From Mangrovibacterium marinum (GTDB lineage: Bacteria > Bacteroidota > Bacteroidia > Bacteroidales > Prolixibacteraceae), in NCBI RefSeq assembly GCF_003046625.1, contig NZ_QAAD01000028.1:1-45892 (forward strand): DNA of 45,892 bases. The letters are read 5' to 3'. This document shows, one piece after another, positions 15,414 through 45,892 of this stretch; position 1 is the stretch's first letter, and every line of letters begins with the position of its first letter. Made by a program: the position numbers and the translations under genes. The notes under the pieces were generated by a model, which did not search any database, was not told the origin of the DNA, and was given only the letters and a program-made list of their open reading frames with translations.

Positions 15414-17178
<1,765 letters not shown>

Positions 17179-21842: not shown

Positions 21843-23408
21843 ATGAAGAATATAGCTTTTTTCATAGTAGCAGCGATGATAGTTGTTTTCAGCGCTTGTT
21901 CAAATGCTCAACCCGGGCAGATAAAAGTTGAAGGTGGCTGGATACAGGGTACCGTTACCGATAGTATGACCATCTTCAAAGGAATCCCTTTTGCCGCCCC
22001 TCCGGTTGGGGAATTGCGCTGGAAAGCCCCTCAGCCGGTTCAACAATGGGAAGGGGTGAAGCAAACTATCGATTATGCACCAGCTCCTATGCAGGGTGGA
22101 AATCCTCAGTCGGGCAAAAGCGAAGACTGTCTGTACCTGAATGTTTGGACCCCCGCAAAATCGACGAAAGACAAAATCCCGGTTTTAGTTTGGATTTACG
22201 GTGGAGGCTTTAGTTTTGGCTCAACCTGCGATCCCATGTACGACGGTGCCAAACTGGCTTCAAAAGGGGTGGTACTGGTTAGCATTGCCTACCGCGTTGG
22301 TCAGTTGGGTTTTCTTGCTCATCCGGATTTGACTGCTGAGAGTCCCGATCATGTATCCGGTAACTACGGTTTGCTTGATCAGATCGCAGGCTTGAAGTGG
22401 ATTAAGCAGAATATTGCCCAGTTTGGAGGCGACCCCGACAAAGTAACTATTTTCGGTGAATCAGCCGGTGGAATTTCTGTCAGCATGTTGTGCGCCTCGC
22501 CGCTGGCAAAAGGTTTGTTTCAAGGGGCAATTTCCGAAAGCGGCGGTTCATTTGGGCCAACCCGTCCGACCACGTACCCGGGAGAAAATATGAAAACCCT
22601 GGAACAGGCAGAAGCAGATGGTATTGAATATGCAAAGCAATTTGGAGCTTCGTCGATTGCGGAATTGCGTCAGATGGATGCCGAAAAATTTATCCCGGCG
22701 GGATGGACAATGCCCGGCGGATGGCCCATAGTTGACGGTTATGTCATTCCGGGAGACCAGCACACCATGTATCAGAACGGCAACTACAACGATATTCCGG
22801 TGCTTATTGGTTACAATTCCGACGAAGGGGCAAGCTTTTCAAGGGAAAGAACGCCGGAACAATATATCGAAGGAGTGAAAGCGCGTTACGGTCAGTTTGC
22901 TGATACATTGATAGCTGCTTATCCGGCAGGTGAGAACTCAGTACCCAAAACAGCGCGCGATTTAATGCGCGATGCCGCTTTTGGATGGCAAACCTGGGCG
23001 TGGGCACGCCTTCAATCCGAAGCCGGAAAATCGAAGGTCTATTACTATTATTTTGACCAGCACCCGGATTTTCCGGAAGGTTCGCCTATGTATGGATTCG
23101 GTTCTCCCCATGGGCAAGAAGTTGCCTATGTGTTCCAGCATTTGAACAACGCAGACCCGAATACTTCGGCTTCGGACAAGGAAATATCGGAAGCAATGGG
23201 AACTTATTGGACAAACTTTGCCAAATACGGCACCCCGAACGGTGAAGGTGTACCCGAATGGCCGGCTTTTAGCGATCAAAACCCGAAGGTAATGTACCTG
23301 GGCCCAACACCGCATATTGGGCCGGTTCCAAGTGAGCAGTCATTGAAAGTGCTTGATACCTATTTCGAATGGCGGCGTACCCCCGAAGGACAAGCCTGGG
23401 CCAAGTAA
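21843..23408 (+). CDS. Type-B carboxylesterase, lipoprotein
   Basis: A 521-residue esterase of the carboxylesterase/cholinesterase fold with a lipobox (VVFSAC, Cys19). It has EDCLYLNVWTPA, the oxyanion loop WIYGGGFSFGS, the nucleophile Ser207 in FGESAGG, the acid Glu in YNSDEGASF and the catalytic His in GSPHGQEVAY. It begins six bases after the GH3 stop. Such genes are frequent in Bacteroidetes hemicellulose PULs and presumably remove acyl groups from sugars or plant phenolics; the real substrate is unknown. Its last 165 or so residues are closely matched by the chimeric gene at 35658, which gives a direct intact reference for that oddity. Confidence 0.9.
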   Translation: MKNIAFFIVAAMIVVFSACSNAQPGQIKVEGGWIQGTVTDSMTIFKGIPFAAPPVGELRWKAPQPVQQWEGVKQTIDYAPAPMQGGNPQSGKSEDCLYLNVWTPAKSTKDKIPVLVWIYGGGFSFGSTCDPMYDGAKLASKGVVLVSIAYRVGQLGFLAHPDLTAESPDHVSGNYGLLDQIAGLKWIKQNIAQFGGDPDKVTIFGESAGGISVSMLCASPLAKGLFQGAISESGGSFGPTRPTTYPGENMKTLEQAEADGIEYAKQFGASSIAELRQMDAEKFIPAGWTMPGGWPIVDGYVIPGDQHTMYQNGNYNDIPVLIGYNSDEGASFSRERTPEQYIEGVKARYGQFADTLIAAYPAGENSVPKTARDLMRDAAFGWQTWAWARLQSEAGKSKVYYYYFDQHPDFPEGSPMYGFGSPHGQEVAYVFQHLNNADPNTSASDKEISEAMGTYWTNFAKYGTPNGEGVPEWPAFSDQNPKVMYLGPTPHIGPVPSEQSLKVLDTYFEWRRTPEGQAWAK

Positions 23409-26423: not shown

Positions 26424-28901
26424 ATGAAATCAATCTATTACCTGCTGACTTGTGTGCTCATTTTAAGCGTGAGTTGCAAATCGCAGTCGTATGAAAAAAC
26501 GGCCTCAGGGATAAAAACGACCATCGATTCCACGGTCGTGGAAGTCAGGTTTTATACACCCGGAATTGTTCGGATAATCAAATCGCTTCCCGGTGAAACG
26601 GTTGAAAAAAAGAGCCTTTCGGTGGTGAAAGAAGCCGAAACTGTCCCGCTTAACGTAACTGAATCGGATAGCACGATATCGCTGCTTAGCGATGTGTTGA
26701 CGGTGAAAGTCAATACCCGAACAGGTGCGGTGTCGTACTTGTCGGCAAACGGTGATGCCTTGCTGACAGAAAAGGCCGGAAGCACAGCTTTCACCCGGTT
26801 TAACGATGCCGGAAACGAGACTTATTCGGTTAAGCAATCCTTCACCCTCGACCCCAATGAAGCAATTTATGGGCTGGGAATTCTGCAAAACGGGAAAATG
26901 TCGCAACGTAACCAGAAAGTTCATATGGTACAGAATAACACCTGTGACTTTTCAACTTTCTTCCAATCGGTAAAAGGCTACGGACTGTTCTGGGACAACT
27001 ATTCACCTACCGATTTTACCGATAATGAAGCCGGTACCGAATTTGCTTCGGAAGTTGGCGATTGCATCGATTATTATTTCATGTATGGTAAAAATGCCGA
27101 TGGCGTGGTTGCCGAAATGCGCGACCTGACCGGCAAAGTGCCTATGTTCCCGCTCTGGACCTATGGTTTCTGGCAAAGCCGCGAACGTTATAAAACACAG
27201 GATGAAACGGTGGGTGTGGTTGAAAAATACCGCGAGCTGGGTGTTCCATTGGATGGTATTATTCAGGACTGGCAATACTGGGGCGACAACTACCATTGGA
27301 ACGGCATGTCGTTTCTGAACCCGGGCTTCCCGGAACCGCAAAAATTTGTTGATGACGTTCATAATCTGAATGCACACCTGATTATTTCAATCTGGGCATC
27401 TTTTGGCCCGGAAACACCACAATACAAAGAATTGAAAGAAAAGAACATGCTGATGGATTTTCAAACCTGGCCGCAATCAGGGAAAGATATCTGGCCGCCT
27501 GACATGAATTATCCTTCGGGCGTTCAGGTGTATGATGCATTTAACCCGGAAGCACGGGACATTTACTGGGAATACCTAGACAAAGGGCTTTTCTCGTTAG
27601 GTATTGATGGTTGGTGGATGGACTCCACAGAACCTGACCACCTCGATTTCAAACCAAAGGATTTTGATAACAAAACCTATCTGGGGTCTTTCCGCAAAGT
27701 ACGTAATGCCTTTCCGTTGGAAACGGTTGGAGGCGTATACGACCACCAGAGACAAGTATCTTCAGATAAGCGCGTATTCATTTTAACCCGTTCCGGTTTT
27801 GCCGGTCAACAACGCTATGGTTGTAATGTTTGGTCGGGCGACCTGGGTTCATCCTGGGACTCATTCCGCAGCCAAATTCCTGCCGGTTTGAACTTCACCT
27901 TAACCGGAAATCCGAACTTCAATTCCGATATCGGCGGGTTCTTTGCCGGGGCTTACAACAAGTCGTGGAGCGATGGAACAGCAGCCAAAAATCCGCTGTT
28001 CCAGGAATTATATGTGCGCTGGTTGCAATACGGCGTATTTACCCCGATGATGCGTTCACACGGAACAGATATGAAACGTGAAATCTACTACTTTGGCAAA
28101 CAAGGCGAGCCGGTTTACGATGCCATTGCGAATGCCATCAATTTGCGCTACTCTCTGCTGCCGTACATTTATACCACTTCGTGGGATGTTGCCAGCAATA
28201 ATTCCAGCTTTATGCGCGCCTTGGTGATGGATTTTCCGGCCGACAAAAAAGTGTGGGACATGAACAGTGAATACATGTTTGGCCAGTCCTTGCTTGTAGC
28301 GCCGGTAATGAATGCACAGTACACACCAGAGAAAATAGTAAAAGTTGACGAAGCAAGCGGCTGGAACAAAGGGAACGCCAAAACGAAAGAAGGCTTCCCG
28401 GCGGTTGATTTCACCGAAGTAAAATCGTCGCCTGTTTATTTGCCGGAAGGTACGGCTTGGTATGATTTCTGGACCAACGAAAAGTTCGATGGCGGACAGG
28501 AAATTGCCAAAGAAACAACCATCAATACAACGCCCGTGTATGTTAAAGCCGGAGCTATTCTGCCTATCGGACCCAAAGTGCAATACGCTACTGAGAAAAA
28601 ATGGGATAATCTGGAGATCCGTATTTACGAAGGTGCAGATGGCGAGTTCACGCTGTACGAAGACGAAAACGATAATTACAACTACGAAAAAGGGGTGTAT
28701 TCAACCATTACGTTTAAATGGAACGACGCCGACAAAACTCTGACGATTGGCAGACGCAATGGCGAATTTCCTGGAATGTTGACCGAACGGACTTTCAACA
28801 TAGTGCTTGCTTCGAAAGACAAAACAAAAGGAAATGAAATTGTGAGCCAGCCGGATAAAGCCGTGACATATTCGGGTGACGAGGTCGTGGTTAAACTATA
28901 A
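26424..28901 (+). CDS. GH31 alpha-xylosidase-type glycosidase, lipoprotein
   Basis: Start at 26424 gives a clear lipoprotein signal (MKSIYYLLTCVLILSVSC, Cys18); the open frame reaches back to 26361 only through a non-secretory extension. The 825-residue protein has the N-terminal mutarotase-like domain, then a TIM barrel with DGIIQDWQYWGDNYHW, nucleophile Asp400 in GWWMDSTEPDH and acid/base Asp473 in WSGDLGSSWDSF, then a DUF5110-like C-terminal domain (EGADGEFTLYEDEND). The WWMDxTEPD form is typical of alpha-xylosidases from hemicellulose PULs, which take alpha-linked xylose from side chains; some relatives act on alpha-glucose. It is followed after 25 bases by the DUF3237 gene. Confidence 0.9.
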   Translation: MKSIYYLLTCVLILSVSCKSQSYEKTASGIKTTIDSTVVEVRFYTPGIVRIIKSLPGETVEKKSLSVVKEAETVPLNVTESDSTISLLSDVLTVKVNTRTGAVSYLSANGDALLTEKAGSTAFTRFNDAGNETYSVKQSFTLDPNEAIYGLGILQNGKMSQRNQKVHMVQNNTCDFSTFFQSVKGYGLFWDNYSPTDFTDNEAGTEFASEVGDCIDYYFMYGKNADGVVAEMRDLTGKVPMFPLWTYGFWQSRERYKTQDETVGVVEKYRELGVPLDGIIQDWQYWGDNYHWNGMSFLNPGFPEPQKFVDDVHNLNAHLIISIWASFGPETPQYKELKEKNMLMDFQTWPQSGKDIWPPDMNYPSGVQVYDAFNPEARDIYWEYLDKGLFSLGIDGWWMDSTEPDHLDFKPKDFDNKTYLGSFRKVRNAFPLETVGGVYDHQRQVSSDKRVFILTRSGFAGQQRYGCNVWSGDLGSSWDSFRSQIPAGLNFTLTGNPNFNSDIGGFFAGAYNKSWSDGTAAKNPLFQELYVRWLQYGVFTPMMRSHGTDMKREIYYFGKQGEPVYDAIANAINLRYSLLPYIYTTSWDVASNNSSFMRALVMDFPADKKVWDMNSEYMFGQSLLVAPVMNAQYTPEKIVKVDEASGWNKGNAKTKEGFPAVDFTEVKSSPVYLPEGTAWYDFWTNEKFDGGQEIAKETTINTTPVYVKAGAILPIGPKVQYATEKKWDNLEIRIYEGADGEFTLYEDENDNYNYEKGVYSTITFKWNDADKTLTIGRRNGEFPGMLTERTFNIVLASKDKTKGNEIVSQPDKAVTYSGDEVVVKL

Positions 28902-28926
28902 AGTATTACCAGAGAAAAAGAACCGT

Positions 28927-29493
28927 ATGAACTTTGTATTTCAACGAAATAGGCTCGGTACAGTGCTCATCATGCTGCTGCTACTGTTCATATCCTGGAG
29001 TGGTTTTGCACAGAGTGCCAGCCCGGAAAATGGCGATAGTATTTACCTCGATTTCAAAACCGAACTGATGTGGAAAGCAAAGGTAAGAATCGGCAATGTG
29101 TTGAATGTTGGGGAGAGCAAACGGGGTACGCGGCGTATGATTCCGATTACCGGCGGCACGTTTAGCGGGCCAAAAATAAAGGGCGAAGTTTTACCTTATG
29201 GCGAAGACTGGCAACTAGTGCGCCCTGACGGCGATACCGAACTCAATGCATGTTACCTGCTGAAAACAGACGATGGCATTCTTATTCGGGTTGCAAACAA
29301 GGCGTTAATGCACACTCCTGCAAAAGGGGAAGAAGGCGGCTTTTATGTGAAATCGGTGATTGAGCTCGAAGCTCCTTCGGCAAGTTCATACGACTATTTG
29401 AACCATGCCATTTTTATAGGAACACTGGAGATTCCAGAGCTGAAAGCCAATGAAGAGCCCTACGTGGTGATTGGCGTTTATAAAGTATTGTAA
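28927..29493 (+). CDS. Secreted DUF3237-family protein of unknown function
   Basis: The start at 28927 yields a signal peptide (TVLIMLLLLFISWSGFAQ); an upstream GTG inside the GH31 gene is rejected. The mature part (about 160 residues) matches the DUF3237 pattern: GTRRMIPITGGTFSGPKIKG, EVLPYGEDWQLVRPDGDTEL, LLKTDDGILIRVANKALMH. Family proteins are small beta-rich domains without an established activity, and most that I know of are cytoplasmic; here it is exported. It sits between two GH31 genes with gaps of 25 and 22 bases, so it is co-transcribed with them. It could be a lyase, esterase-like helper or ligand-binding domain for a side-chain product. I do not assign a function. Confidence 0.8.
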   Translation: MNFVFQRNRLGTVLIMLLLLFISWSGFAQSASPENGDSIYLDFKTELMWKAKVRIGNVLNVGESKRGTRRMIPITGGTFSGPKIKGEVLPYGEDWQLVRPDGDTELNACYLLKTDDGILIRVANKALMHTPAKGEEGGFYVKSVIELEAPSASSYDYLNHAIFIGTLEIPELKANEEPYVVIGVYKVL

Positions 29494-33577: not shown

Positions 33578-35620
33578 ATGGGAAATGACTATAAGATGTA
33601 TAAAGCGATAGCGTTATTTTTTACTTGTTACATAATAGCAATCAGCTCGGCGCTGGCTCAAACTGTATGGCTCGACGAGCTGGATTTGAGCACGGCGACC
33701 CAAGGTTACGGGGTTCCAGCCTCGAATAAAACAGTTGATGGCAAGGTGTTTACGATTGCCGGTAAAACATATGACCGGGGTTTCGGGACACACGCCGAAA
33801 GTTCGTTGACCATTTTATTGGAAGGGAAAGCCATTGAGTTTACCGCAAAAGTTGGTATGGATGACGAAGTCATCGGACATCAACCTGCCTCTGAATTTGT
33901 GGTTTACGGCGATGGTAAGAAACTATGGTCGAGTGGGGTAATGCGTTTGGGCGATGAAGCCAGGGCCTGTTCCGTTCCACTTAACGGCGTAAAGAAGGTG
34001 GAACTGGTGGTAACCGACGGCGGAAACGGTAATTATTACGACCACGCCGATTGGGCAGATGCCAAGTTTAAAACCGATGGTGTAAGCACTTTCAAAACAT
34101 ATAATCCGGTATCCAGCGAGCCATATATTTTGACGCCTCCTGCCCCGGCCGAACCCAGAATCAATGGTGCCCGTGTATTTGGTGTCCGTCCGAACTCGCC
34201 TTTTGAGTTCCGTGTACCGGCAACCGGCGACCGCCCGATGATTTTTTCGGCAACCGGATTACCTGCCGGGCTGGAAATTGATCCGAAAAGCGGCGTTATT
34301 ACCGGTAAGTTGTGTGAGCCCGGAACTTTTAAAGTTACACTCGGAGCAGAGAATGCCAAGGGCAAGGATGTGAAAAAACTGCGGATTGAGTGTGGCAATA
34401 AGATTGCACTAACCCCGCCAATGGGCTGGAATAGTTGGAACTGTTTTGCCGGCGAAGTTTCAGCTGAAAAAATAAAACGTGCTGCCGACGCTATGGTCAA
34501 AAGCGGACTGGTCAATCACGGTTGGACTTATATCAATATCGACGACTTCTGGCAAAACAACCGCGACTCCAAAGATCCGTCATTGCGGGGCGATTTACGC
34601 GACAAAGACGGGAATATTGTGCCAAATGCCCGGTTTGACGACATGAAAGCGCTAGCCGATTATGTACACAGTTTAGGCTTGAAAATAGGCTTGTATTCCA
34701 GCCCGGGCCCTTGGTCGTGTGGTGGTTGTGCTGGTACCTACGGCTACGAACAACAAGATGCCGAGATCTACGCCAAATGGGGTTTCGACTATCTGAAGTA
34801 CGATTGGTGCAGTTACGGGGGCGTAATTGATGGTATGCAGGATAATGACCCTTATAAAGTGTCTTCTTTGTCCTATAAAGGAGGAGAGGATTTGGAAACC
34901 GCTAAAAAACCATTCGAAATAATGGGTGATTACCTGGCAGAGCAGCCGCGCGATATTGTTTACAGTTTGTGCCAATACGGGATGTCCGATGTCTGGAAAT
35001 GGGGCGGTTCTGTTCAGGGCAACTGTTGGCGAACAACCAATGATATTACGGACACCTGGTCGAGTATGAGCGGTATAGCTTTGTCGCAGGATAAAGCTGC
35101 ACCGTATGCTAAACCGGGTAACTGGAACGACCCGGATATGCTGGTGATTGGCACTGTGGGCTGGGGAAATTCGCATCCAAGTAAGCTGAAACCTGACGAG
35201 CAATACATGCACATGAGTTTGTGGAGCCTTTTTGCAGCACCGCTGCTTATTGGCTGCGACATGGAAAAACTGGACGATTTCACCCTCAATCTGTTAACTA
35301 ACGATGAAGTAATTGCCGTAAATCAGGACCCGTTGGGTAAACAGGCGACCTGCCTTCAAACAATCGGTGATTTACGTATTTATGTGAAAGACCTGGAGGA
35401 TGGAAGTTATGCCGTAGGCTTCTGCAACTTTGGACTCGATATCGTGGATATTTCGTACAAAGATTTTGAAAAACTCGGAATCTCAGGTCGCCAAACGGTG
35501 CGCGATTTATGGCGGCAAAAGGATATTGCAGGCATTGACACCCAAAGCGATTCGTTTACACTCAAAGTTCCGGTACACGGGGTGCTTCTTTATAAATTTA
35601 CCCCTGTGAATGAAATGTAA
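33578..35620 (+). CDS. GH27 alpha-galactosidase/beta-L-arabinopyranosidase with NPCBM domain
   Basis: A 680-residue secreted protein (signal peptide ending SALAQ). Order: NPCBM carbohydrate-binding domain (about 28-170, GYGVPASNKTVDGKVFTIAG), a putative Ig/cadherin-like domain (about 190-265, FSATGLPAGLEIDPKSGVIT), the GH27 barrel (about 270-590) and a C-terminal beta domain. Barrel motifs are PPMGWNSWNCF, nucleophile Asp409 in YLKYDWCSYGG and acid/base Asp489 in WRTTNDITDTW. The family removes terminal alpha-D-galactose; some members remove beta-L-arabinopyranose, which has the same stereochemistry at the ring positions that matter. In this context the likely target is galactose or arabinopyranose on hemicellulose side chains. 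Confidence 0.93.
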   Translation: MGNDYKMYKAIALFFTCYIIAISSALAQTVWLDELDLSTATQGYGVPASNKTVDGKVFTIAGKTYDRGFGTHAESSLTILLEGKAIEFTAKVGMDDEVIGHQPASEFVVYGDGKKLWSSGVMRLGDEARACSVPLNGVKKVELVVTDGGNGNYYDHADWADAKFKTDGVSTFKTYNPVSSEPYILTPPAPAEPRINGARVFGVRPNSPFEFRVPATGDRPMIFSATGLPAGLEIDPKSGVITGKLCEPGTFKVTLGAENAKGKDVKKLRIECGNKIALTPPMGWNSWNCFAGEVSAEKIKRAADAMVKSGLVNHGWTYINIDDFWQNNRDSKDPSLRGDLRDKDGNIVPNARFDDMKALADYVHSLGLKIGLYSSPGPWSCGGCAGTYGYEQQDAEIYAKWGFDYLKYDWCSYGGVIDGMQDNDPYKVSSLSYKGGEDLETAKKPFEIMGDYLAEQPRDIVYSLCQYGMSDVWKWGGSVQGNCWRTTNDITDTWSSMSGIALSQDKAAPYAKPGNWNDPDMLVIGTVGWGNSHPSKLKPDEQYMHMSLWSLFAAPLLIGCDMEKLDDFTLNLLTNDEVIAVNQDPLGKQATCLQTIGDLRIYVKDLEDGSYAVGFCNFGLDIVDISYKDFEKLGISGRQTVRDLWRQKDIAGIDTQSDSFTLKVPVHGVLLYKFTPVNEM

Positions 35621-35657: not shown

Positions 35658-36422
35658 ATGAAAGTATTGATTAGAGTATTTGTTCTATTCTTTTTGTTGA
35701 GCATCGGGGTGGGTAACGTATGGGCGGCCGGCGGCGTAAAAAAAGCTAGTCCTGACAAAAAAATTGAAGTTTGGGTCTCCGTTACTCCGGAAGGAAGGCT
35801 TTCATATAACGCTAAGTCAAACGGCATTGAGGTATTGGAGACGTCTCCCTTTGGTATTGTTGTTGATGGCCTTGACTTGGGGGATGGTGCAAAAATCGTT
35901 TCCAAACCTGTTCGTACAAAAATCGATGAAGCTTATCCGGCAGGAGAAAGCTCAGTGCCGAAAACTGCGTACGATCTGATGCGGGATGCTGCTTTCGGTT
36001 GGCAGACATGGAGCTGGGCGCGTCTTCAATCAGAAACCGGAAGGTCGAAGGTTTTTTATTACTATTTCGATCAGCATCCTGATTACCCGCAAGATTCACC
36101 GATGTACGGTTATGGTTCTCCTCATGGACAGGATGTGGCTTACGTTTTCCAGTATCTCGATGCTTCGAACCCGCAAACTTCTGAGTCTGATCTGGAAATC
36201 TCGGAAGCTATGGGTACCTACTGGACAAACTTTGCCAAATACGGAGATCCTAACGGTGAAGGAGTCCCCGAGTGGCCGTCTTTCAGTGCCGAAGACCCGC
36301 AGGTTATGTACCTCGGGCCGACGCCACATGTGGGGCCGGTTCCAAGTTCGGAGTCATTACAAGTTCTGGATAGTTATTTCAGCTGGCGCAGAACTCCGGA
36401 AGGTGCCGATTGGGCTGAATAA
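35658..36422 (+). pseudogene. Chimeric ORF: GH97 N-terminus joined in frame to a carboxylesterase C-terminus
   Basis: Start at 35658 gives a signal peptide (LIRVFVLFFLLSIGVGNVWA); 254 residues. Residues 1 to about 90 are the first strands of a GH97 beta-sandwich (ASPDKKIEVWVSVTPEGRLS, VLETSPFGIVVDGLDLGDG). From about residue 91 on, the sequence is the C-terminal third of a type-B carboxylesterase, closely matching residues 357-520 of the gene at 21843 (SPMYGYGSPHGQDVAYVFQY, WTNFAKYGDPNGEGVPEWP). The catalytic His156 remains, but the GESAGG serine, oxyanion loop and the whole GH97 active site are missing. It looks like the result of a deletion that fused two neighbouring genes, so neither ancestral activity should survive. 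The open frame and secretion signal are intact, so a product could still be made. Confidence 0.85.
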
Positions 36423-36444
36423 TTCATGATAAAATACGATCAAA

Positions 36445-38400
36445 ATGAAAACGAAAAATCTTCGCTTAATACTCTTTTTTACAGTTTTTCTGACGATTGG
36501 TGTCAAAGCCGAAAAACAGTCAGTTAAGAGCCCTGATGGTAATTTGGTTGTGCATGTCTTCTGTGACGATGGTACGCCTGCTTACAGCGTTTTACTAAAC
36601 GGACAAAGTTTTTTAGAATCGTCTCCGCTCGGAATGAAAACCAACGTAGGCGATTTTTCAACCCAAATGACTTTGCTTGATGATGTCAAGCGTAGTGAAA
36701 TTAGCGGAGCCTATGAACTACACAATATCAAAACAAGCACTGTTAATTTCAGAACTAATGAGGCTGTTTTCTCATTTCACAAAGACGGTAACATCGCTTT
36801 TGATGTTACATTCCGGGTCAGCAACAATGACATTGCATTTAAATACCGGATTTATCCGCAGAAAGACAGACTTGCTTGCGTTGTATATGAAGAGGCAACA
36901 GGTTTTGCATTTCCCGAAGGAACCACAACTTTTCTTTGTCCGCAAGCCGCACCAATGGGGGGGTACGCACGAACATCACCCAGTTACGAAACATCCTATA
37001 CTGTTGATGATGCAATGGGTAAAAACGGCTGGGGAAATGGCTACACCTTTCCCTGTTTGTTTAAAGTGAATGAAAACGGTTGGGTATTGATTTCAGAAAC
37101 AGGTGTTGACAGTCGCTATTGCGCCAGTCGTTTGATTGGACATGAAGGCGGATTGTATAGCATTGGCTTTCCGCAACAAGGCGAGAACAACGGCAACGGA
37201 ACAGCGGAGCCAGGTATTAAGCTTCCGGGTGAAACGCCTTGGCGGACAATTACCCTTGGCGAAACCTTGGCTCCGATTGTTGAAACAACGATCCCTTTCG
37301 ATGTTGTGCATCTGAAATATATGGCATCTCAACAATATCAATACACAAAAGGTGCGTGGAGTTGGATTATCAAAATGGACAATAACACGACTTTTCCGGT
37401 TCAGAAAGAATATATAGATTTTAGCGCGGCCATGGGCTGGCAGACCGTACTGGTGGATGCACTTTGGGATACCCAAATTGGTCGTGATAAAATTAAGGAA
37501 CTGGCCCAATATGGAGCAAACAAAGGTGTTGGTTTGTATCTCTGGTACAACTCTAATGGATACTGGAATGATGCTCCGCAGGGGCCAAGGGGAATGATGA
37601 ATCGAACTAATATTCGTCGGCAGGAAATGGCATGGATGAAAAGTATAGGCATTAAGGGGATTAAGGTCGATTTCTTTGGAGGGGATAAACAGGAAACTAT
37701 GAAACTGTATGAAGATATTTTGACCGATGCCAATGATTTTGGGATCATGGTTATTTTCCACGGTTGCACTTTGCCCCGCGGATGGGAACGGATGTACCCG
37801 AATTATGCGTCAAGCGAGGCGGTATTGGCTAGTGAGAACCTTCACTTTGGTCAGGGAAGCTGCGACCATGAAGCCTTTAACGCTTGTATTCACCCTTTTA
37901 TTCGGAATACCGTCGGTAGTATGGATTTTGGCGGAAGCGCCCTGAATGAGTTTTATAATGCTGACAATACCCCCAATAAAGGAAGCCACCGGGTGACATC
38001 AGATGTGTATGCTCTGGCAACGGCTGTGTTATTTCAGAGTGCAGTGCAACATTTTGCATTAGCGCCAAACAATTTGACCGATGCTCCGGCCTGGTCGATC
38101 GATTTTATGAAACAAGTTCCTACGACCTGGGATGAAGTGAAGTATGTTGACGGTTATCCCGGTAAATATGTGGTGCTGGCGCGTCGGCACGGTAACAAAT
38201 GGTATATTGCTGGTATTAATGCTCAACCAGAAACACTGAGATTAAAGGTAAAGCTTCCGATGCTGGAAGCTGAAGAGGCGTTGACTGTATATACAGATGA
38301 TATGAACTTGCAAGGTGATGTTTCTATCGCCAAATTGAATAAAAATATGGAATTGGAATTGATAATTCCTTGTAATGGCGGAACAGTCGTTGTTAATTGA
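36445..38400 (+). CDS. GH97 glycosidase, retaining-type, second copy
   Basis: A complete 651-residue GH97 enzyme with signal peptide (LILFFTVFLTIGVKA). The N-terminal beta-sandwich (SVKSPDGNLVVHVFCDDG) is followed by a TIM barrel with GIKVDFFGGDKQET, FHGCTLPRGWERMYPNYASS and TWDEVKYVDGYPG. Asp409 in KVDFF and Glu458 in ASSEAV fit the nucleophile and acid/base of retaining GH97 members (alpha-galactosidase or beta-L-arabinopyranosidase type). It shares framework with the GH97 at 17189 but differs in length and loops, so it is not a recent copy. It is 22 bases after the chimeric ORF and is the last gene of the enzyme run. Confidence 0.92.
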   Translation: MKTKNLRLILFFTVFLTIGVKAEKQSVKSPDGNLVVHVFCDDGTPAYSVLLNGQSFLESSPLGMKTNVGDFSTQMTLLDDVKRSEISGAYELHNIKTSTVNFRTNEAVFSFHKDGNIAFDVTFRVSNNDIAFKYRIYPQKDRLACVVYEEATGFAFPEGTTTFLCPQAAPMGGYARTSPSYETSYTVDDAMGKNGWGNGYTFPCLFKVNENGWVLISETGVDSRYCASRLIGHEGGLYSIGFPQQGENNGNGTAEPGIKLPGETPWRTITLGETLAPIVETTIPFDVVHLKYMASQQYQYTKGAWSWIIKMDNNTTFPVQKEYIDFSAAMGWQTVLVDALWDTQIGRDKIKELAQYGANKGVGLYLWYNSNGYWNDAPQGPRGMMNRTNIRRQEMAWMKSIGIKGIKVDFFGGDKQETMKLYEDILTDANDFGIMVIFHGCTLPRGWERMYPNYASSEAVLASENLHFGQGSCDHEAFNACIHPFIRNTVGSMDFGGSALNEFYNADNTPNKGSHRVTSDVYALATAVLFQSAVQHFALAPNNLTDAPAWSIDFMKQVPTTWDEVKYVDGYPGKYVVLARRHGNKWYIAGINAQPETLRLKVKLPMLEAEEALTVYTDDMNLQGDVSIAKLNKNMELELIIPCNGGTVVVN

Positions 38401-38518: not shown

Positions 38519-38550
38519 AAAGTCTCTTACACATTCTGTATCGATTTACT

Positions 38551-39159
38551 ATGTTTGAAAAACAAAATGAAATGTTAGAGCGTGAATCTGATCTTTTGAA
38601 TGGTCTTAAGAACGATGATGAAAATACTTTTAAAATCATTTTCAAAAGGTATTATTCACGTCTTTATTATTTTATTTTCGAATTTATTCCGTACGATGAT
38701 CTTGTTGAAAATGTGATTCAGGATACATTTTTAACCTTATGGAATAAACGTTATGACTTGGATGATGACACCAATTTCTCAGCCTACTTGTTTACAGTTG
38801 CCCGAAATAATTGTTTGTATCGTTTACGTAGCGAAAAGTACAGGAAAAAATTATTTGTAGAAGGTTCGGCAGATAGCATGGAACTGGAATTGAATGCCAG
38901 TATTTTATCTACAGTTGACACCTCTGTCTATGCTTTTCGGGAGATTGAACGAATTATTGAAGAAACCTTAGACCAGCTGCCGGCACAATGCAAAAATGTA
39001 TTTCTGCTTCGGATTAATGCTAAAAAGAACAAGGAAATTGCCGATGAGCTGAATATATCGGTAAAAGTAGTCGAAAAGCATGTCACAAAAGGGCTTAAGG
39101 TTTTTCGAAAGGCATTGAAAGATTATTTGCCGCTGATCGGTTATTTATTTACGTTGTAA
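38551..39159 (+). CDS. ECF-type RNA polymerase sigma factor
   Basis: A 202-residue sigma-70 factor of the ECF type. Region 2 (about 25-95) has FKIIFKRYYSRLYYFIFEFI and VIQDTFLTLWNKRYDL; region 4 (about 140-195) has LPAQCKNVFLLRINAKKNKE and the helix-turn-helix IADELNISVKVVEKHVTKGL. It should direct polymerase to promoters of the adjacent PUL when released by the FecR protein encoded next. The gene is strikingly AT-rich (a 60-base sample near 38,650 is about 25% GC). It is intact, unlike the sigma remnant at 1128. Confidence 0.95.
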   Translation: MFEKQNEMLERESDLLNGLKNDDENTFKIIFKRYYSRLYYFIFEFIPYDDLVENVIQDTFLTLWNKRYDLDDDTNFSAYLFTVARNNCLYRLRSEKYRKKLFVEGSADSMELELNASILSTVDTSVYAFREIERIIEETLDQLPAQCKNVFLLRINAKKNKEIADELNISVKVVEKHVTKGLKVFRKALKDYLPLIGYLFTL

Positions 39160-39175
39160 AAAAAATAGAGAGAGA

Positions 39176-39184
39176 GGGGGGGGG
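39176..39184. repeat. Nine-G homopolymer after an AG repeat
   Basis: A run of nine G residues follows a short (AG)n tract in the 64-base space between the sigma and anti-sigma genes, about 39 bases before the FecR start. Such runs can slip during replication. It lies outside both reading frames, so slippage could alter only leader length or translation of the anti-sigma gene. Confidence 0.8.
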
Positions 39185-39223
39185 AGGAGCGGCTTTCGTG
39201 CATTCTAATGTTAAACGAAATGC

Positions 39224-40228
39224 ATGAATAAGCTTGAGGACCTGATTGATTTAATTACCACGAATCTGGATTCGCCCGAAAAAGAGAAGCTGATCGCGGA
39301 AATTGAAAGAGAGCCGGATAAAAAGAAATTATATTCCCGATTAAAAACGACTTGGGCGTTAATTGCCTCTGAGCGGCAGATGTCGGACGCTAAGGTTGAA
39401 ACCTCCTATAAACAGGTAAGAGTTCAGTTGTCAAGAAACAGAGCACCCCGACTGATAAGTTTAGTCCGTTTAAAGTATGCAGCTTCAATTGCTTTACTCA
39501 TCGGGTTATCTGTTGTCATGTTCTATTGGGGACGATATAGTAAGTCCTGGGATGAAACGTTAGTCGTGAATTCAGTTATTGCTCCGAAAGGAGAAATCTC
39601 GAAAGTTATACTCCCGGATAGTACCGTTGTGTGGTTGAACTCGGGTACAACGTTGAAATACGACAATCATTTTGCTCTCGATAACAGGCGTTTGACAATC
39701 TATGGTCAAGCCTACCTTGCCGTGAAACGCAATGAAGACTTGCCTCTTGTAGTATCAACCGGACAGATAGATGTAAAGGTATTGGGAACCAAATTTGATG
39801 TCTGCGCATATCCGGAAGAAGATGACATTCAGGTCGTTCTTGAGTCGGGGAAGGTTGAGCTGTTGAGAAGCGAAGACCGGAGCGTACTTGACATGCTTAA
39901 GCCCGGTCAAATGGCCAAATACGATATCTTGAACCATAGACTTGCAATTGAAGACGTTCAGCCTAATACATATATGTCGTGGAAGGAAGGAGAACTTCTC
40001 TTTAAGGATGCTCCAATGTCCAATGTTATTAAAAGATTGGAACGTAGGTTCGACGTAGCCTTTGTTGTTAAAGATCCGGGGGTTTACCGATCTGTACTAA
40101 CCGGTAATTTCAGGACTGAAGGCTTAAAGGAAATTATGGAGTACATCCGGTTTTCTTGCCAAATTAATTATTCAATACAGAAAGACTCTGTTTCAAACAC
40201 TTCTACAATTATTCTTCAGTCGAAATAG
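39224..40228 (+). CDS. FecR-family anti-sigma factor
   Basis: A 334-residue inner-membrane anti-sigma factor. The N-terminal about 80 residues should bind the sigma factor in the cytoplasm; one membrane helix follows (about 82-102, AASIALLIGLSVVMFYWG). The periplasmic part has the FecR domain (about 115-220, VILPDSTVVWLNSGTTLKYD, VKVLGTKFDVCAYP) and a DUF4974 domain at the C-terminus (about 250-330, MSWKEGELLFKDAPMSNVIK). The last domain contacts the STN domain of a SusC-type receptor, which is present in the next gene. The order sigma, anti-sigma, STN-SusC, SusD is the standard trans-envelope signalling set. Confidence 0.95.
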   Translation: MNKLEDLIDLITTNLDSPEKEKLIAEIEREPDKKKLYSRLKTTWALIASERQMSDAKVETSYKQVRVQLSRNRAPRLISLVRLKYAASIALLIGLSVVMFYWGRYSKSWDETLVVNSVIAPKGEISKVILPDSTVVWLNSGTTLKYDNHFALDNRRLTIYGQAYLAVKRNEDLPLVVSTGQIDVKVLGTKFDVCAYPEEDDIQVVLESGKVELLRSEDRSVLDMLKPGQMAKYDILNHRLAIEDVQPNTYMSWKEGELLFKDAPMSNVIKRLERRFDVAFVVKDPGVYRSVLTGNFRTEGLKEIMEYIRFSCQINYSIQKDSVSNTSTIILQSK

Positions 40229-40285
40229 TCGTAAATCAAACTCAAAATAAAATAACAGCTTATGACCTAACAAACAGAAAATAAA

Positions 40286-40311
40286 AAAGGAGATGCGTCA
40301 ACATCTCCTTT
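40286..40311 (+). terminator. Perfect 10-base-pair hairpin between anti-sigma and SusC genes
   Basis: AAAGGAGATG at 40286-40295 and CATCTCCTTT at 40302-40311 pair perfectly around the loop CGTCAA. The 3' arm ends in TTT and then CC, so the U-tract is short. It could be a terminator or attenuator that separates low-level regulator transcription from high-level susC transcription. A direct repeat GCCGGTA follows in the SusC leader, about 20 bases apart. Confidence 0.6.
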
Positions 40312-40389
40312 CCATTGTGTCGCTGCCGGTAGTCGTCCAAAACAGCCGGTAACTAAACTTGAATTATAAATCCAAATCATGACAAATTT

Positions 40390-43300
40390 ATGAAAAAAAC
40401 GAATTGTCGAATGATTTCTTTAGCGTGTTCGCTTTGGAAATCAAAACTATTCAGAATTATGAGAATCATGTGTTTCTTGTTAATTGTGGGGATGGTTTCC
40501 GCTTTTGCGGAAAAAGCCCATTCTCAAGCTGTGCGGTTTAGTTTAAACTTGCGAAATGTCACGACCAAAACGGTACTTCAACAAATTGAAGAGCAGTCGC
40601 AATATTATTTTATTTACGATGCCTCGGTGGTTGATGTAGAACGAAAGACAAATATCTCTGCTGAAGATCAGTCGATTGTTGCTGTGTTGGATCAGCTGTT
40701 TAGTCAGACCGACGTGATTTATAAAATCAATGATCGGACTATTGCTCTGTCTTCCACTTCGATCCCGCAAAACGTTTCTCAAACAATTGGCGTGTCCGGG
40801 AAAGTTACAGGGGATGACGGTGTACCGCTGCCAGGGGTAACTGTTGTAGTAAAAGGTAGTACTAATGGTACAATTACAGATGCGGAAGGAAATTATAATA
40901 TTCCGCAAGTAGACGGTAATGGTATACTTCATTTTTCCTTTGTTGGAATGAAACCTCAGGATGTAAGTGTTCAGGGACGCACTGTTATCAACGTTGTAAT
41001 GGCAGAAGAAGCAATTGGCTTGGATGAAGTTGTTGCAATTGGATACGGAACACAAAGTCGGCAGAATCTAACCGGCTCTATTGCAAAAGTGTCTAACGAA
41101 ATACTCGAAAAAAAGCAGGTAAGTACCATTGAATCAGCTTTGCAGGGAGAGGTTGCTGGTGTGTCTGTTGTGAATAACGGAGGTCCTGGAGTTTCTCCGA
41201 CAGTTCGTATAAGGGGAATTGGCTCTGTTAACTTTAATGCCGATCCGCTATATGTTGTTGATGGCTTACCCGTAGGTAATTTGAACAACTTTGATATTAA
41301 AGATATGGAGTCTGTCACAGTTCTGAAGGATGCGGCGTCTGCTGCAATTTACGGCTCAAGAGCTGCGAATGGAGTCATTATTATCACGACCAAACAAGGA
41401 GCTCGTAACAATAAAATGACTGTTTCAGTGGATGCTTCTACTGGGATTCAGAAAGCCTGGAATATGCTGGACCTTTTAAATCGGGATGAATATCTTCAAT
41501 TTGGAACAGAACTCTTAACTAATGCCGGCGATGCAGCTCCTCCTCGTTTCTCCCAGATGAATGAACCGATATATGAAGGGACTACACAAACATTTGCCCA
41601 AACAGAAACCGACTGGCAGGATGAAATGTTTCGCACAGCTCCGATCTCTCAACTAAATGTCAATATATCAGGTGGTAATGATAAAATTCGTTTGTATACG
41701 TCATACGGAAGATTTTCGCAGAAAGGGATTATGCTTGGTACTGACTATAACCGACACAGCTTCAGAGTTAATACAGAAAGCAAGGTTAGTGACCGCATAA
41801 CTGTGGGAGAGAATGTGAAGGCAACTTACAGTGAAAGAAGCAATCAAAGAACCGATGGTGGGCGTACAATAGTAAAGCATATGGTCAATCAGGTGCCTTA
41901 TATCCCCGCATATGATCCAACGAAAACAGGCGGCTTTGGCGGACCTGAAACTGTTGACGGAAGTGATGCAGCTAATCCTTTGCGAATTGCGACTTTTGAA
42001 TCGGATAAAACAGATGTTGTGAATTTGCTGGGTAACGTGTTTGCAGAGGTAAGACTGACAGACTGGTTGAAATTTCGTTCCAGTGTTGGTATGGAATATA
42101 CTTCAGACCGAAATGTCATCAAATTACCAATTTACAACGAGGGATATAATCAGCGGGTTGATAATGAGTTAACAGATAACCGCTTCACCTACTTCTCGCC
42201 GATTTTTACGAATCAGCTAACCTTCAATCACGCTTTTGGTAATCATTTGATCAATGCAGTTCTTGTTTCTGAACAGCAGAAAACCAAGAGAACTGTTCTT
42301 AACGGCTACGGCAAACAGGCGACGAACGATCTTACTGAGTTAACCGGTTCTACTGCCCAAACAGTAGATGGTTACAAAGAGGAAACAGCATTGATTTCTT
42401 ACGCCGGCCGATTGAACTATTCGTTTGCCAACAAGTATTTATTTAATTTTTCAATCCGTCGTGACGGGTCGTCAGTATTTGCTCCTGGCAAGAAATGGGG
42501 TTATTTTCCGGGAGTCTCTGTTGGTTGGGTTATAAGTGAAGAAGGTTTTATGGACAACGTAAATGTCATTTCTAACCTTAAACTAAAAGCGAGTTACGGA
42601 ACCTTAGGTTTTAACGCAGTGGGAGCCTATCCATGGCAGTCTTCCATTTCTTCCAATACAACCGCAGTATTCAACAACAACTACGAGAATAATCCTGGTG
42701 CCTATTTCGATAAATTGCCCAACAAGGACTTGGAATGGGAGATCACCAAAATGACAAACTTTGGTTTTGATCTGGAACTGCTCGAGGGATCGGTATCTTT
42801 TTCTGCTGAGTATTTTGAGCGTAAAACAGACAACCTGATCGTAAATAACCCGTTGCCGACTTCAATGGGGTATGCCGTTAATCCTGCGACAAACATTGGT
42901 TCTATGAAAAACTGGGGATATGAATTCAATGCAGGATATCATAAAAGCTTCGGAGAACTCAATTTATCAGTAGACGGAAATATCAGCTTTGTTGATAATA
43001 AAGTTTTGAAACTGAGTACTGGACAACCTAATATCGATATGGGAGGTGTAACTTCAGACTATGGTGGTTATACGATTACCAGGACGCAAGAAGGTTACCC
43101 GATACAAGGTTTTTACGGTTGGGTGGTTGATGATATTTTCCAATCTCAACCTGAAATCGACGCGTTAAATGCAGATTCCGGCGGATTTTATCAGTCTGAG
43201 AGCACAGCTCCGGGGGATATCAAGTTTAAAGATATTAACGGACGCGATGCCAACGGAGAGCTCACCGGGAAACCTGATGGTAAAATTACAGATGATGACC

Positions 43301-43848
43301 GAACGTATATCGGGAGTTACTTGCCTGATTTTTCATACGGTGTCAATATTTTAGCTTCTTACAAAGGATTTGATATTTCAGTTGCGTTGCAGGGAGTACA
43401 AGGCAATGAAATTTACAACGGAACAAAAGTATTGACGCAAGGCATGATGCGCCTATTCAACATGGATAAAGCGGTGCTAAATGCTTGGACTCCTGAAAAT
43501 ACCAATACGGATATACCGAGAGCCGTTAATGGTGACCCTAACCACAATGCTCGAACTTCGGATCGTTTCGTGGAAGACGGATCTTATTTGCGAGTGAAGA
43601 ATCTGACGCTTGGTTACACATTCTCTCCGAACATGATGTCCTCGATATCGAAAGGAGCAGTTTCGTCACTTCGTCTCTACTTCACAGCTCAGAATCTACT
43701 CACTTTTACAAAATACAATGGTTACGACCCTGAGATTGGAGCATCGTCAACTTATTCTGGAACGAATGCAACCTTGCTTCAAGGTGTAGATTTTGGATTT
43801 TATCCGCAGCCAAGAACATTCATATTTGGAATTAACGTGTCATTTTAA
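40390..43848 (+). CDS. SusC-family TonB-dependent receptor with STN signalling domain (second PUL)
   Basis: An 1152-residue outer-membrane transporter. After a signal region (about 1-38, ending AEKAHSQ) comes an STN domain (about 47-120, TTKTVLQQIEEQSQYYFIYD), a carboxypeptidase-like domain (about 135-203, GVPLPGVTVVVKGSTNGTIT), the plug (about 215-337, DPLYVVDGLPVGN, VLKDAASAAIYGSRAANGVI) and a barrel ending GINVSF. The STN domain, absent from the SusC at 6860, is what transmits substrate binding to FecR. It imports the oligosaccharides that signal this locus, probably hemicellulose fragments given the upstream enzymes. Confidence 0.97.
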   Translation: MKKTNCRMISLACSLWKSKLFRIMRIMCFLLIVGMVSAFAEKAHSQAVRFSLNLRNVTTKTVLQQIEEQSQYYFIYDASVVDVERKTNISAEDQSIVAVLDQLFSQTDVIYKINDRTIALSSTSIPQNVSQTIGVSGKVTGDDGVPLPGVTVVVKGSTNGTITDAEGNYNIPQVDGNGILHFSFVGMKPQDVSVQGRTVINVVMAEEAIGLDEVVAIGYGTQSRQNLTGSIAKVSNEILEKKQVSTIESALQGEVAGVSVVNNGGPGVSPTVRIRGIGSVNFNADPLYVVDGLPVGNLNNFDIKDMESVTVLKDAASAAIYGSRAANGVIIITTKQGARNNKMTVSVDASTGIQKAWNMLDLLNRDEYLQFGTELLTNAGDAAPPRFSQMNEPIYEGTTQTFAQTETDWQDEMFRTAPISQLNVNISGGNDKIRLYTSYGRFSQKGIMLGTDYNRHSFRVNTESKVSDRITVGENVKATYSERSNQRTDGGRTIVKHMVNQVPYIPAYDPTKTGGFGGPETVDGSDAANPLRIATFESDKTDVVNLLGNVFAEVRLTDWLKFRSSVGMEYTSDRNVIKLPIYNEGYNQRVDNELTDNRFTYFSPIFTNQLTFNHAFGNHLINAVLVSEQQKTKRTVLNGYGKQATNDLTELTGSTAQTVDGYKEETALISYAGRLNYSFANKYLFNFSIRRDGSSVFAPGKKWGYFPGVSVGWVISEEGFMDNVNVISNLKLKASYGTLGFNAVGAYPWQSSISSNTTAVFNNNYENNPGAYFDKLPNKDLEWEITKMTNFGFDLELLEGSVSFSAEYFERKTDNLIVNNPLPTSMGYAVNPATNIGSMKNWGYEFNAGYHKSFGELNLSVDGNISFVDNKVLKLSTGQPNIDMGGVTSDYGGYTITRTQEGYPIQGFYGWVVDDIFQSQPEIDALNADSGGFYQSESTAPGDIKFKDINGRDANGELTGKPDGKITDDDRTYIGSYLPDFSYGVNILASYKGFDISVALQGVQGNEIYNGTKVLTQGMMRLFNMDKAVLNAWTPENTNTDIPRAVNGDPNHNARTSDRFVEDGSYLRVKNLTLGYTFSPNMMSSISKGAVSSLRLYFTAQNLLTFTKYNGYDPEIGASSTYSGTNATLLQGVDFGFYPQPRTFIFGINVSF

Positions 43849-43877
43849 TGTCGGTTAAACCCTTAAATTCAAAAAGT

Positions 43878-45413
43878 ATGAAAATTAAAATAGCATATAA
43901 AACAGCTTTCTTGCTGACCTTATTTTTAGCCGTGTCCTGCGATGAAAGCATTTTGGATCAGACAAATCCAAATCAATTTACAGTGGATCAGTATTACAAA
44001 GATGCCGACCAACTCACGGCTGCAACGAACGGAATCTATTCTGAGTTTTATGGAGCAGCGCTTTGGGGAAGGATGATGCAGTATTTCTGCGACGGACGAG
44101 CCGATGAGCATGTTCCGGGCGGAGGTCAATTGGAGACGCATAACCGTCAGTTGCTGGAGGGAACTTATGACAATGGAAACTACACGATTAGTGTGGTTTG
44201 GAGAGGACTCTACCGAATCATCCACCGGGCAAATGCAGTCATTCAGTTTGGACCTCAAATTGAAGAAATAGATGCCGCGGTACAAAAGCAACGGATTGCG
44301 GAAGCGAAATTTCTTCGGTCCTGGGCCTACTACTATTTGGTGGTGAATTGGGGGAAGATTCCGGTTTACACTGAAATTGCTCAGTCTCCGGGCGATGCAC
44401 AACCTCTTTCTGAAGAGTCAGTGGTATATCAGTTGTTGGAGACAGATTTGACAACGATTCAAAGTGATTTGGCTTGGAATTATACCGGAAGTGATGCTGG
44501 ACGTGCGAGCAAAGGAGCTGCGAAGTTATTGCTGGCTCGTGTCTATATGCACCAGGGGAAATATTCTGATGCTCGCGATGTGTTGGAGGATATTTATCAG
44601 AATGGTCCATATAGCCTGGTAGCTAACTATTCTGATAACTTCATGGAAGAAACAGAATATAATGACGAATCTATTTTCGAAATCGGCTTTGCCGGAACTG
44701 GCTTTACCTGGAGTGAGGATGGAAATTCATCCAATGCCCGATCAAATGTTATGTTCCAGGATTATAGTCCGGTAGCGTGGCGGAACTGCATTCCGGCGGA
44801 CAAGTTGTTGAACGATTTTGAACGACCCTATAAGGGGGATGCAAAGGAAGATCCGCGTTTGCATGCAACGGTTTATTTTTCGGGTGATACTTTCGGACCC
44901 GCTGAAAGTCCAATTGTACTTACTGATGAGATGCAAAACGGAAACTCTTCTCAATTTAACGGTGCTACAGTTAAGGCAAGTTGGAAAAAATACTCACCGA
45001 TGTACAAGTTAGACCCGGGTGGCTATTACACGTCTAATATCAATTACAGGAATATGCGTTATGCCGAGGTTTTGATTAAACTCGCAGAATGCGAAAACGA
45101 AATCGGCACCCAGGCCAAAGCAATCGAATATTTGAATGAAATCCGAGCCAGAGCGAGTGTCGATATGCCAGCTTACCCTACTGCAAACTATCCTTGCAAT
45201 AGTTACGATCAGGTAATGCGGGCTATAATGCACGAATCCTATGTCGAGTTTTCGGATGAAAAGCTGAGAGAACTGGAACTGGCAAGATGGCGGAAAAACA
45301 ACAAGTTCTCCACGCTAAATCCAGATCCGATTGATTATATCGTATCAGATCCGAGTAAAGCTTATTTGGTTTATCCAAATGAAGAGACAACTGCAAATAC
45401 AAACATCGATTAA
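43878..45413 (+). CDS. SusD-family outer-membrane lipoprotein (second PUL)
   Basis: ATG at 43878 is preferred because it gives a standard lipoprotein signal (MKIKIAYKTAFLLTLFLAVS then Cys21, followed by DES). An ATG at 43848 overlaps the SusC stop codon and would add ten residues before it. The 511-residue protein has the classic SusD layout: N-terminal TNPNQFTVDQYYKDADQLTA, helical TPR region (EAKFLRSWAYYYLVVNWGKI) and C-terminal EVLIKLAECENEIG, ARASVDMPAYP. It pairs with the STN-SusC to bind and import glycans. Its type is different from the SusD at 10093. Confidence 0.95.
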   Translation: MKIKIAYKTAFLLTLFLAVSCDESILDQTNPNQFTVDQYYKDADQLTAATNGIYSEFYGAALWGRMMQYFCDGRADEHVPGGGQLETHNRQLLEGTYDNGNYTISVVWRGLYRIIHRANAVIQFGPQIEEIDAAVQKQRIAEAKFLRSWAYYYLVVNWGKIPVYTEIAQSPGDAQPLSEESVVYQLLETDLTTIQSDLAWNYTGSDAGRASKGAAKLLLARVYMHQGKYSDARDVLEDIYQNGPYSLVANYSDNFMEETEYNDESIFEIGFAGTGFTWSEDGNSSNARSNVMFQDYSPVAWRNCIPADKLLNDFERPYKGDAKEDPRLHATVYFSGDTFGPAESPIVLTDEMQNGNSSQFNGATVKASWKKYSPMYKLDPGGYYTSNINYRNMRYAEVLIKLAECENEIGTQAKAIEYLNEIRARASVDMPAYPTANYPCNSYDQVMRAIMHESYVEFSDEKLRELELARWRKNNKFSTLNPDPIDYIVSDPSKAYLVYPNEETTANTNID

Positions 45414-45671: not shown

Positions 45672-45892
45672 ATGAAATTCCTAAGCTTACGATTCGGACT
45701 ATTCTTATTCCTATTTCTCATCGGCTCTCAGTTATTAGTCGCTCAAAAACTGCATAGCGACAATGGCGACGGTACCTACACCAATCCGGTAATTCCGGCC
45801 GATTTTCCCGATCCCGATGTCATTCGGGTTGATGATACCTACTACATGGTCAGCACCACCATGTGGGTGTTTCCCGGAGTAACCGTGCTGCA
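45672..45892 (+). CDS. GH43-family glycosidase, N-terminal part (cut by window end)
   Basis: An ATG at 45672 opens a frame that stays open to the window edge (73 full codons). It begins with a signal peptide (LFLFLFLIGSQLLVAQ) and then GTYTNPVIPADFPDPDVIRV and TYYMVSTTMWVFPG. The FPDPDVI motif with the base Asp and the YYMVST strand are the first blade of GH43 beta-xylosidases/arabinofuranosidases. It is a different GH43 group from the three CBM6-bearing genes. Its place after the hairpin indicates a new transcription unit in the same PUL and supports a xylan-type substrate. Confidence 0.85.
   Translation, partial: MKFLSLRFGLFLFLFLIGSQLLVAQKLHSDNGDGTYTNPVIPADFPDPDVIRVDDTYYMVSTTMWVFPGVTVL

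What the first reader, a model, noticed from the sequence alone, without database searches (positions are those of the whole stretch)
35658..36422. In-frame chimera of a GH97 N-terminus and a carboxylesterase C-terminus
One intact frame with a signal peptide joins about 90 residues of a GH97 beta-sandwich to about 164 residues of a carboxylesterase tail. The tail is nearly the same as that of the esterase at 21843. At the joint, KIDEAYPAG combines a GH97-like KIDE.YP with the esterase AAYPAG, and 14 identical bases (35931-35944 and 22917-22930) cover the joint. This suggests that two adjacent ancestral genes were fused by a deletion at a short match. The fused product keeps a catalytic His but no nucleophile, so it is either a frozen relic or a new secreted, non-catalytic domain protein.
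Basis: partly seen in the sequence, partly recalled or inferred. Interest (0 to 1): 0.75.

Follow-up and report, generated by a model that had tools for sequence, protein, structure and literature searches.

The report
Decaying two-enzyme fusion gene remnant
Pieces of two different enzyme genes were joined in a bacterium into one short readable gene that lacks the working parts of both; it is shared with a related species but seems to be drifting, so it is most likely a remnant rather than a new protein.

Summary
The chimera is real. Window 35658-36422 is one frame: a signal-peptide-like start, about 70 residues of a GH97 N-terminal domain, and the last 163 residues of a type-B carboxylesterase. 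It is not an assembly error: Mangrovibacterium lignilyticum BM_7 has the same joint and neighbours, 93% aa identity. A full-length match was seen in 2 of 140 family genomes.

The esterase at 21843 is a more distant paralogue (79% aa). The 14 shared bases are the start of ordinary homology.

Both catalytic machineries are gone; the catalytic His survives in the window but is Asn in M. lignilyticum. dN/dS between the two chimeras is 0.31, against 0.06-0.07 for the intact esterase, the next GH97 and the upstream gene, but a GH43 neighbour (0.175) is not significantly lower. Neutrality over the whole gene is rejected.

Best reading: a fusion relic losing constraint. A retained new function is not excluded.

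The parts
35658..36422 (+). Chimeric ORF, 254 aa: signal-peptide-like start, GH97_N fragment, carboxylesterase C-terminal fragment
   Evidence: orthologue in M. lignilyticum L047:8001-8765, 93% aa over 254 residues
35727..35930 (+). GH97 N-terminal domain fragment (residues 24-91)
   Evidence: Pfam GH97_N; alignment with 26 GH97-like fragments; nearest full-length frame 44% identical
35931..36422 (+). Carboxylesterase C-terminal fragment (residues 92-254) with the catalytic-His position (codon 156) but no Ser or acid
35931..38400 (+). 2.47-kb block collinear (85% nt) with the end of the intact esterase plus GH97 on contig C25; the match starts at the joint
36445..38400 (+). Downstream intact GH97 (651 aa), 87% aa identical to the C25 GH97; not a close parent of the chimera's GH97 half
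21843..23408 (+). Intact type-B carboxylesterase, paralogue of the chimera's tail (79% aa)
33578..35620 (+). Upstream neighbour (NPCBM plus Melibiase_2 domains), 37 bp before the chimera's start

Best explanation
A non-catalytic fusion relic. An illegitimate joining event linked codon about 91 of a GH97 gene (not found intact) to codon 359 of a type-B carboxylesterase that stood directly before another GH97 gene. The joint is in frame, so a 254-residue product can still be read, but it has neither the GH97 barrel nor the esterase nucleophile and acid. The event predates the divergence, or the exchange of this region, between this genome and M. lignilyticum. Since then the gene has lost much of its constraint, most clearly in M. 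lignilyticum, and is drifting towards a pseudogene. Shown: domain make-up, joint, second species, missing catalytic parts, raised dN/dS against three of the four genes tested, loss of the catalytic His in one species. Inferred: secretion, lack of function, and the kind of joining event (local deletion, or a block recombined into the GH97 gene).
For: Composition and joint. Same joint and neighbours in M. lignilyticum. Block shared with C25 starting at the joint. The catalytic His is present in 98 of 98 other tails compared and in the window chimera, but is Asn in the M. lignilyticum chimera, which breaks 5 of 56 columns conserved at 95% or more (median of the others 0; 1 of 98 breaks as many). 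dN/dS 0.31 for the chimera pair (19 nonsynonymous, 17 synonymous) against 0.058 for the intact esterase, 0.067 for the GH97 and 0.066 for the upstream gene; one-sided Fisher P 0.002, 0.0006, 0.0005. M. lignilyticum branch of the tail: 7 nonsynonymous, 2 synonymous, as neutral sequence would give. AlphaFold2: chimera pTM 0.44, mean pLDDT 55.8 with 32 rows; intact esterase 0.83 and 76.2 with 30 rows.
Against: dN/dS is below 1: with 36 nucleotide differences, 18 or fewer amino-acid changes occur in 0.025-0.8% of neutral simulations, and 76-83% of simulations gain a stop, so some constraint existed. Each half alone is weaker (N half P 0.046-0.066, tail 0.018-0.041). The GH43 neighbour at 32192 (17N/25S, dN/dS 0.175) does not differ significantly from the chimera (P 0.20). 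The window chimera itself breaks only 1 of the 56 conserved columns, as 48 of 98 other tails break at least one. Its branch of the tail has 5N/9S (P 0.0007-0.008 against neutrality), though 13 of the 14 changes lie in codons 141-186, which may be an exchanged tract. No frameshift or stop in either species. Residues 161-210 of the chimera model still reach pLDDT 83-85, and its alignment held only tails besides the two chimeras, so the GH97 half could not be judged.
Confidence: 0.65

Rival explanations
1. A new secreted non-catalytic protein: the GH97 strands and the mostly helical esterase end form a small binding or scaffolding protein that selection keeps, at least in the lineage of this genome.
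For: Open frame in two species; fewer amino-acid changes than neutral (P 0.00025-0.008); window branch of the tail 5N/9S and only 1 conserved column broken.
Against: dN/dS about five times that of the intact esterase, GH97 and upstream genes; conserved residues lost in M. lignilyticum; part of one domain and the coreless end of another are poor folding units; low-confidence model.
Confidence: 0.14
2. Selection acts on the frame, not the product: uninterrupted translation through the remnant avoids polarity on the GH97 gene that starts 22 bp after its stop, so frame-breaking changes are removed while amino acids drift.
For: Short gaps on both sides (37 and 22 bp); the spacer is identical in the window and M. 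lignilyticum and nearly so in C25; open frame with raised dN/dS.
Against: No expression data; with 36 random changes 17-24% of simulated copies gain no stop, so the open frame needs no special cause; indels were not simulated.
Confidence: 0.15
3. Other origin of the same relic: an esterase-GH97 block from a C25-like locus was recombined into a resident GH97 gene, rather than a deletion between two neighbours. (This concerns origin only and can be true together with the best explanation.)
For: Similarity to C25 starts at the joint and ends at the GH97 stop; the region is a mosaic between the two species, 99.6% after 38547 against about 94% before.
Against: The block is 85% identical to C25, so a recent copy from there is excluded; GH97 followed by this esterase exists in Bacteroides ihuae, so a neighbouring pair is a known arrangement.
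Confidence: 0.4
4. Assembly or sequencing artefact.
For: Paralogous segments exist in the genome.
Against: Same joint and flanks in an assembly of another species. Reads were not available to me.
Confidence: 0.01

Closest known systems
Glycoside hydrolase family 97 (Pfam PF14508 / PF10566 / PF14509)
   Same: Residues 30-97 match the first part of the N-terminal domain (model 2-68 of 229)
   Different: The rest of the N-terminal domain, the catalytic domain and the C-terminal domain are absent; nearest full-length frame found is 44% identical
Type-B carboxylesterase family (Pfam PF00135; solved relatives of the intact paralogue include 8s6d fumonisin B1 esterase and 1qe3 para-nitrobenzyl esterase)
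   Same: Residues 92-254 are the C-terminal third, 89% identical to the intact C25 esterase
   Different: Nucleophile, acid and most strands are absent; His lost in M. lignilyticum
Complete-domain fusion GH31-esterase in Flavitalea sp. BT771 (L080)
   Same: A carbohydrate-active gene fused in frame to this esterase family
   Different: There both partners are whole; here both are fragments
Bacterial fusion pseudogenes / gene remnants (recalled, general knowledge)
   Same: Fragments of two genes, catalytic parts missing, reduced constraint
   Different: Frame still open in two species

Membership tests
GH97 | N-terminal domain PF14508 | tested here: inconclusive
   Partial: model 2-68 of 229, 27.1 bits over a 25.3 cut-off
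GH97 | Catalytic domain PF10566 and C-terminal PF14509 | tested here: not met
   Absent in P0001, present in window:36445-38400
Type-B carboxylesterase | Full-length PF00135 | tested here: not met
   Model 373-503 of 515 only
Type-B carboxylesterase | Ser / acid / His triad (positions assigned from general knowledge; S207, E328, H423 invariant in 30 aligned intact esterases) | tested here: not met
   Ser and acid lie before the joint; His kept in window, Asn in M. lignilyticum
Fusion pseudogene | Relaxed constraint relative to intact relatives | tested here: met
   dN/dS 0.31 against 0.058-0.067; Fisher P 0.002 or less against 3 genes, 0.036 for tail against intact tail; not significant against the GH43 at 32192 (P 0.20)
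Fusion pseudogene | Neutral evolution of the whole gene | tested here: not met
   Fewer amino-acid changes than neutral, P 0.00025-0.008
Fusion pseudogene | Disrupted frame | tested here: not met
   Open in both species
Conserved domain-fusion family | Same architecture across many genomes | tested here: not met
   Match over all 254 residues in 2 of 140 family genomes (weakest matches not listed) and in 1 of the best 80 of 160 loci of the species-level collection

The most novel reading that the evidence does not exclude
The chimera is a newly born secreted protein: two fragments of unrelated enzymes, neither a whole domain, were joined by chance, and the product is kept for a non-catalytic role in the carbohydrate locus of this genome's lineage while it is being lost in M. 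lignilyticum.
Probability: 0.13. Interest if true: 0.6.

Novelty: new member of a known kind. Interest (0 to 1): 0.27.

Why it matters
It shows how carbohydrate loci of Bacteroidota are reshuffled: one edge of the joint can be placed to the base, an intact copy of one partner stands elsewhere in the same genome, and two species let the fate of the fusion be followed. As a relic it is ordinary. It also warns that annotation by best domain hit would call it an esterase or a GH97, and it can be neither.

Tried and rejected
Assembly artefact: set aside (second species). Parent of the GH97 half = the downstream GH97 or the one at 17162: rejected as a close parent; they score 13.3 and 5.0 bits where other GH97s score up to 42.7. 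Search for a close unfused GH97 parent in 140 family, 393 order and 395 class genomes (overlapping sets): best full-length frame 44% identical; in its 17-kb locus L154 no frame of 150 aa or more matched this esterase. Gene conversion of the window tail by the 21843 esterase: 4 of 14 window-branch changes match it, no clear support. A combined alignment of tails and GH97 fragments misplaced the GH97 rows and was dropped. The second structure job went to the intact-esterase control, so the GH97-half alignment was never folded; no fold search was run. The GH97 subfamily of the N half was not resolved. Loci L156 and L157 were fetched but L157 was not analysed. Promoter and terminator scan: counts near the shuffled mean, not used. 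NCBIfam: no family for the chimera. Paper searches for GH97 + gene fusion + polysaccharide utilization, and for GH97 + carboxylesterase + fusion, held 0 papers; some searches were seen as search listings only and no paper was read.

In the tail comparison rows were dropped if the match did not cover almost the whole tail, or if identical; 98 remained besides the two chimeras, incl. one truncated frame (L074) and one odd row with 13 broken columns (L100).

Full report
Observation. Window 35658-36422 is a 254-residue frame with a GH97_N hit at 30-97 and a COesterase hit at 95-225. With the whole chimera as query, esterase matches begin at residue 88-90; GH97-like matches end at residue 70-116, mostly near 90-105, with weak overrun. 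In the alignment the GH97 similarity runs through the I-D-E-x-Y position, after which the chimera follows the esterase.

Surroundings. The region is a carbohydrate-utilisation locus: SusC/SusD-type genes, GH3, GH16, GH31, GH43 and GH97 genes, esterases, an ECF sigma factor and a FecR. The chimera lies 37 bp after the gene 33578-35620 and 22 bp before an intact GH97 gene.

The true relative of the tail. The genome holds three close copies of the esterase end: the chimera, the gene at 21843, and an intact gene on contig C25 (2451-4016, minus strand). The C25 esterase is followed by a GH97 gene as the chimera is, with nearly the same spacer. Window 35931-38400 is collinear with that pair at 85% nucleotide identity. 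In M. lignilyticum the C25 pair finds only the chimera locus (85%) and the 21843-type esterase (74%), so no intact C25-type pair was found there. The second half of the chimera plus the next gene thus form one inherited unit.

The joint. The GH97 parent was not found: the best full-length frame is 44% identical. Two of the GH97 relatives printed read E-x-[YF]-P at this place, one of them with the bases TATCCG (L132), so a match of about six bases at the joint is possible but not shown.

Distribution. A match over all 254 residues occurs in 2 of 140 family genomes, this one and G105 (the weakest matches were not listed), and in 1 of the 80 best of 160 loci of the species-level collection, M. 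lignilyticum (the window's own record may be left out there). With the GH97 half as query, every other match listed lies in a frame of 288-927 residues. GH97 directly followed by this esterase exists in Bacteroides ihuae (L054). Fusions of the whole esterase exist too: with GH31 (L080) and with DUF3237 (L085).

Selection. Between the window and M. lignilyticum the chimera has 19 nonsynonymous and 17 synonymous differences, dN/dS 0.31 (N half 0.34, tail 0.29). The 21843 esterase has 0.058 (tail 0.059), GH97 0.067, the 33578 gene 0.066, SusC 0.073 (only 5 differences), the GH43 at 32192 0.175. The excess is significant against the esterase, GH97 and 33578 genes (P 0.002, 0.0006, 0.0005) and, for the tail alone against the intact tail, P is 0.036; against the GH43 it is not (P 0.20). 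Neutrality over the whole gene is rejected (P 0.00025-0.008 over four transition weights); for the halves P is 0.046-0.066 and 0.018-0.041. Polarised with C25, the M. lignilyticum branch of the tail has 7N/2S (neutral-like), the window branch 5N/9S, the shared stem, which includes time before the fusion, 6N/9S, the C25 branch 4N/10S. Thirteen of the 14 window-branch changes sit in codons 141-186, which may be an exchanged tract. The region is a mosaic between the species: 99.6% identity after 38547, about 94% before.

Catalysis and fold. In 30 aligned intact esterases S207, E328 and H423 are invariant; I assign them to the triad from general knowledge. Only the His position lies behind the joint: His in 98 of 98 other tails and in the window chimera, Asn in M. 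lignilyticum. The M. lignilyticum copy breaks 5 of 56 conserved columns, the window copy 1, which is ordinary (48 of 98 others break at least one). The joint falls at the end of a helix (338-359) of the intact model, so all strands predicted before residue 359 are lost. AlphaFold2 gives pTM 0.44 and mean pLDDT 55.8 for the chimera, though residues 161-210 reach 83-85, and 0.83 and 76.2 for the intact 21843 esterase; the chimera's alignment held only tails besides the two chimeras.

Verdict. The object is a fusion without catalytic machinery, shared by two species, with reduced constraint, most clearly decaying in M. lignilyticum. Deletion between neighbours and recombination of an esterase-GH97 block into a GH97 gene both fit; I could not separate them.

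Noticed in passing
window 38547-44498 against L047:10809-16762: Identity to M. lignilyticum jumps from about 94% to 99.6% after the GH97 gene: probably a recent exchange tract covering sigma factor, FecR and SusC genes.
   Followed up: partly
window 45756-45892 and L004:1-137: Contigs C28 and C25 share their last 137 bp (97%), the start of what reads like one GH43-type gene; this repeat may have broken the assembly. The GH43 label is by eye, no family search was made on it.
   Followed up: partly
window 15535-17178 and L004:7904-8743: The window gene joins an esterase (PF00756) to a SASA domain; the C25 relative (87% aa) has the first domain only.
   Followed up: no
L080:4563-8492: 1310-residue frame joining GH31 domains and a near-complete carboxylesterase match in Flavitalea sp. 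BT771.
   Followed up: partly
L085:6005-8530: Carboxylesterase fused to DUF3237 (842 aa) in a metagenome-derived genome; DUF3237 genes also stand alone in the window at 28876-29493 and on C25.
   Followed up: no
L074:3276-3908: Another esterase end in a short frame (210 aa) with about 47 residues ahead of it; remnant or frameshift, not resolved.
   Followed up: no
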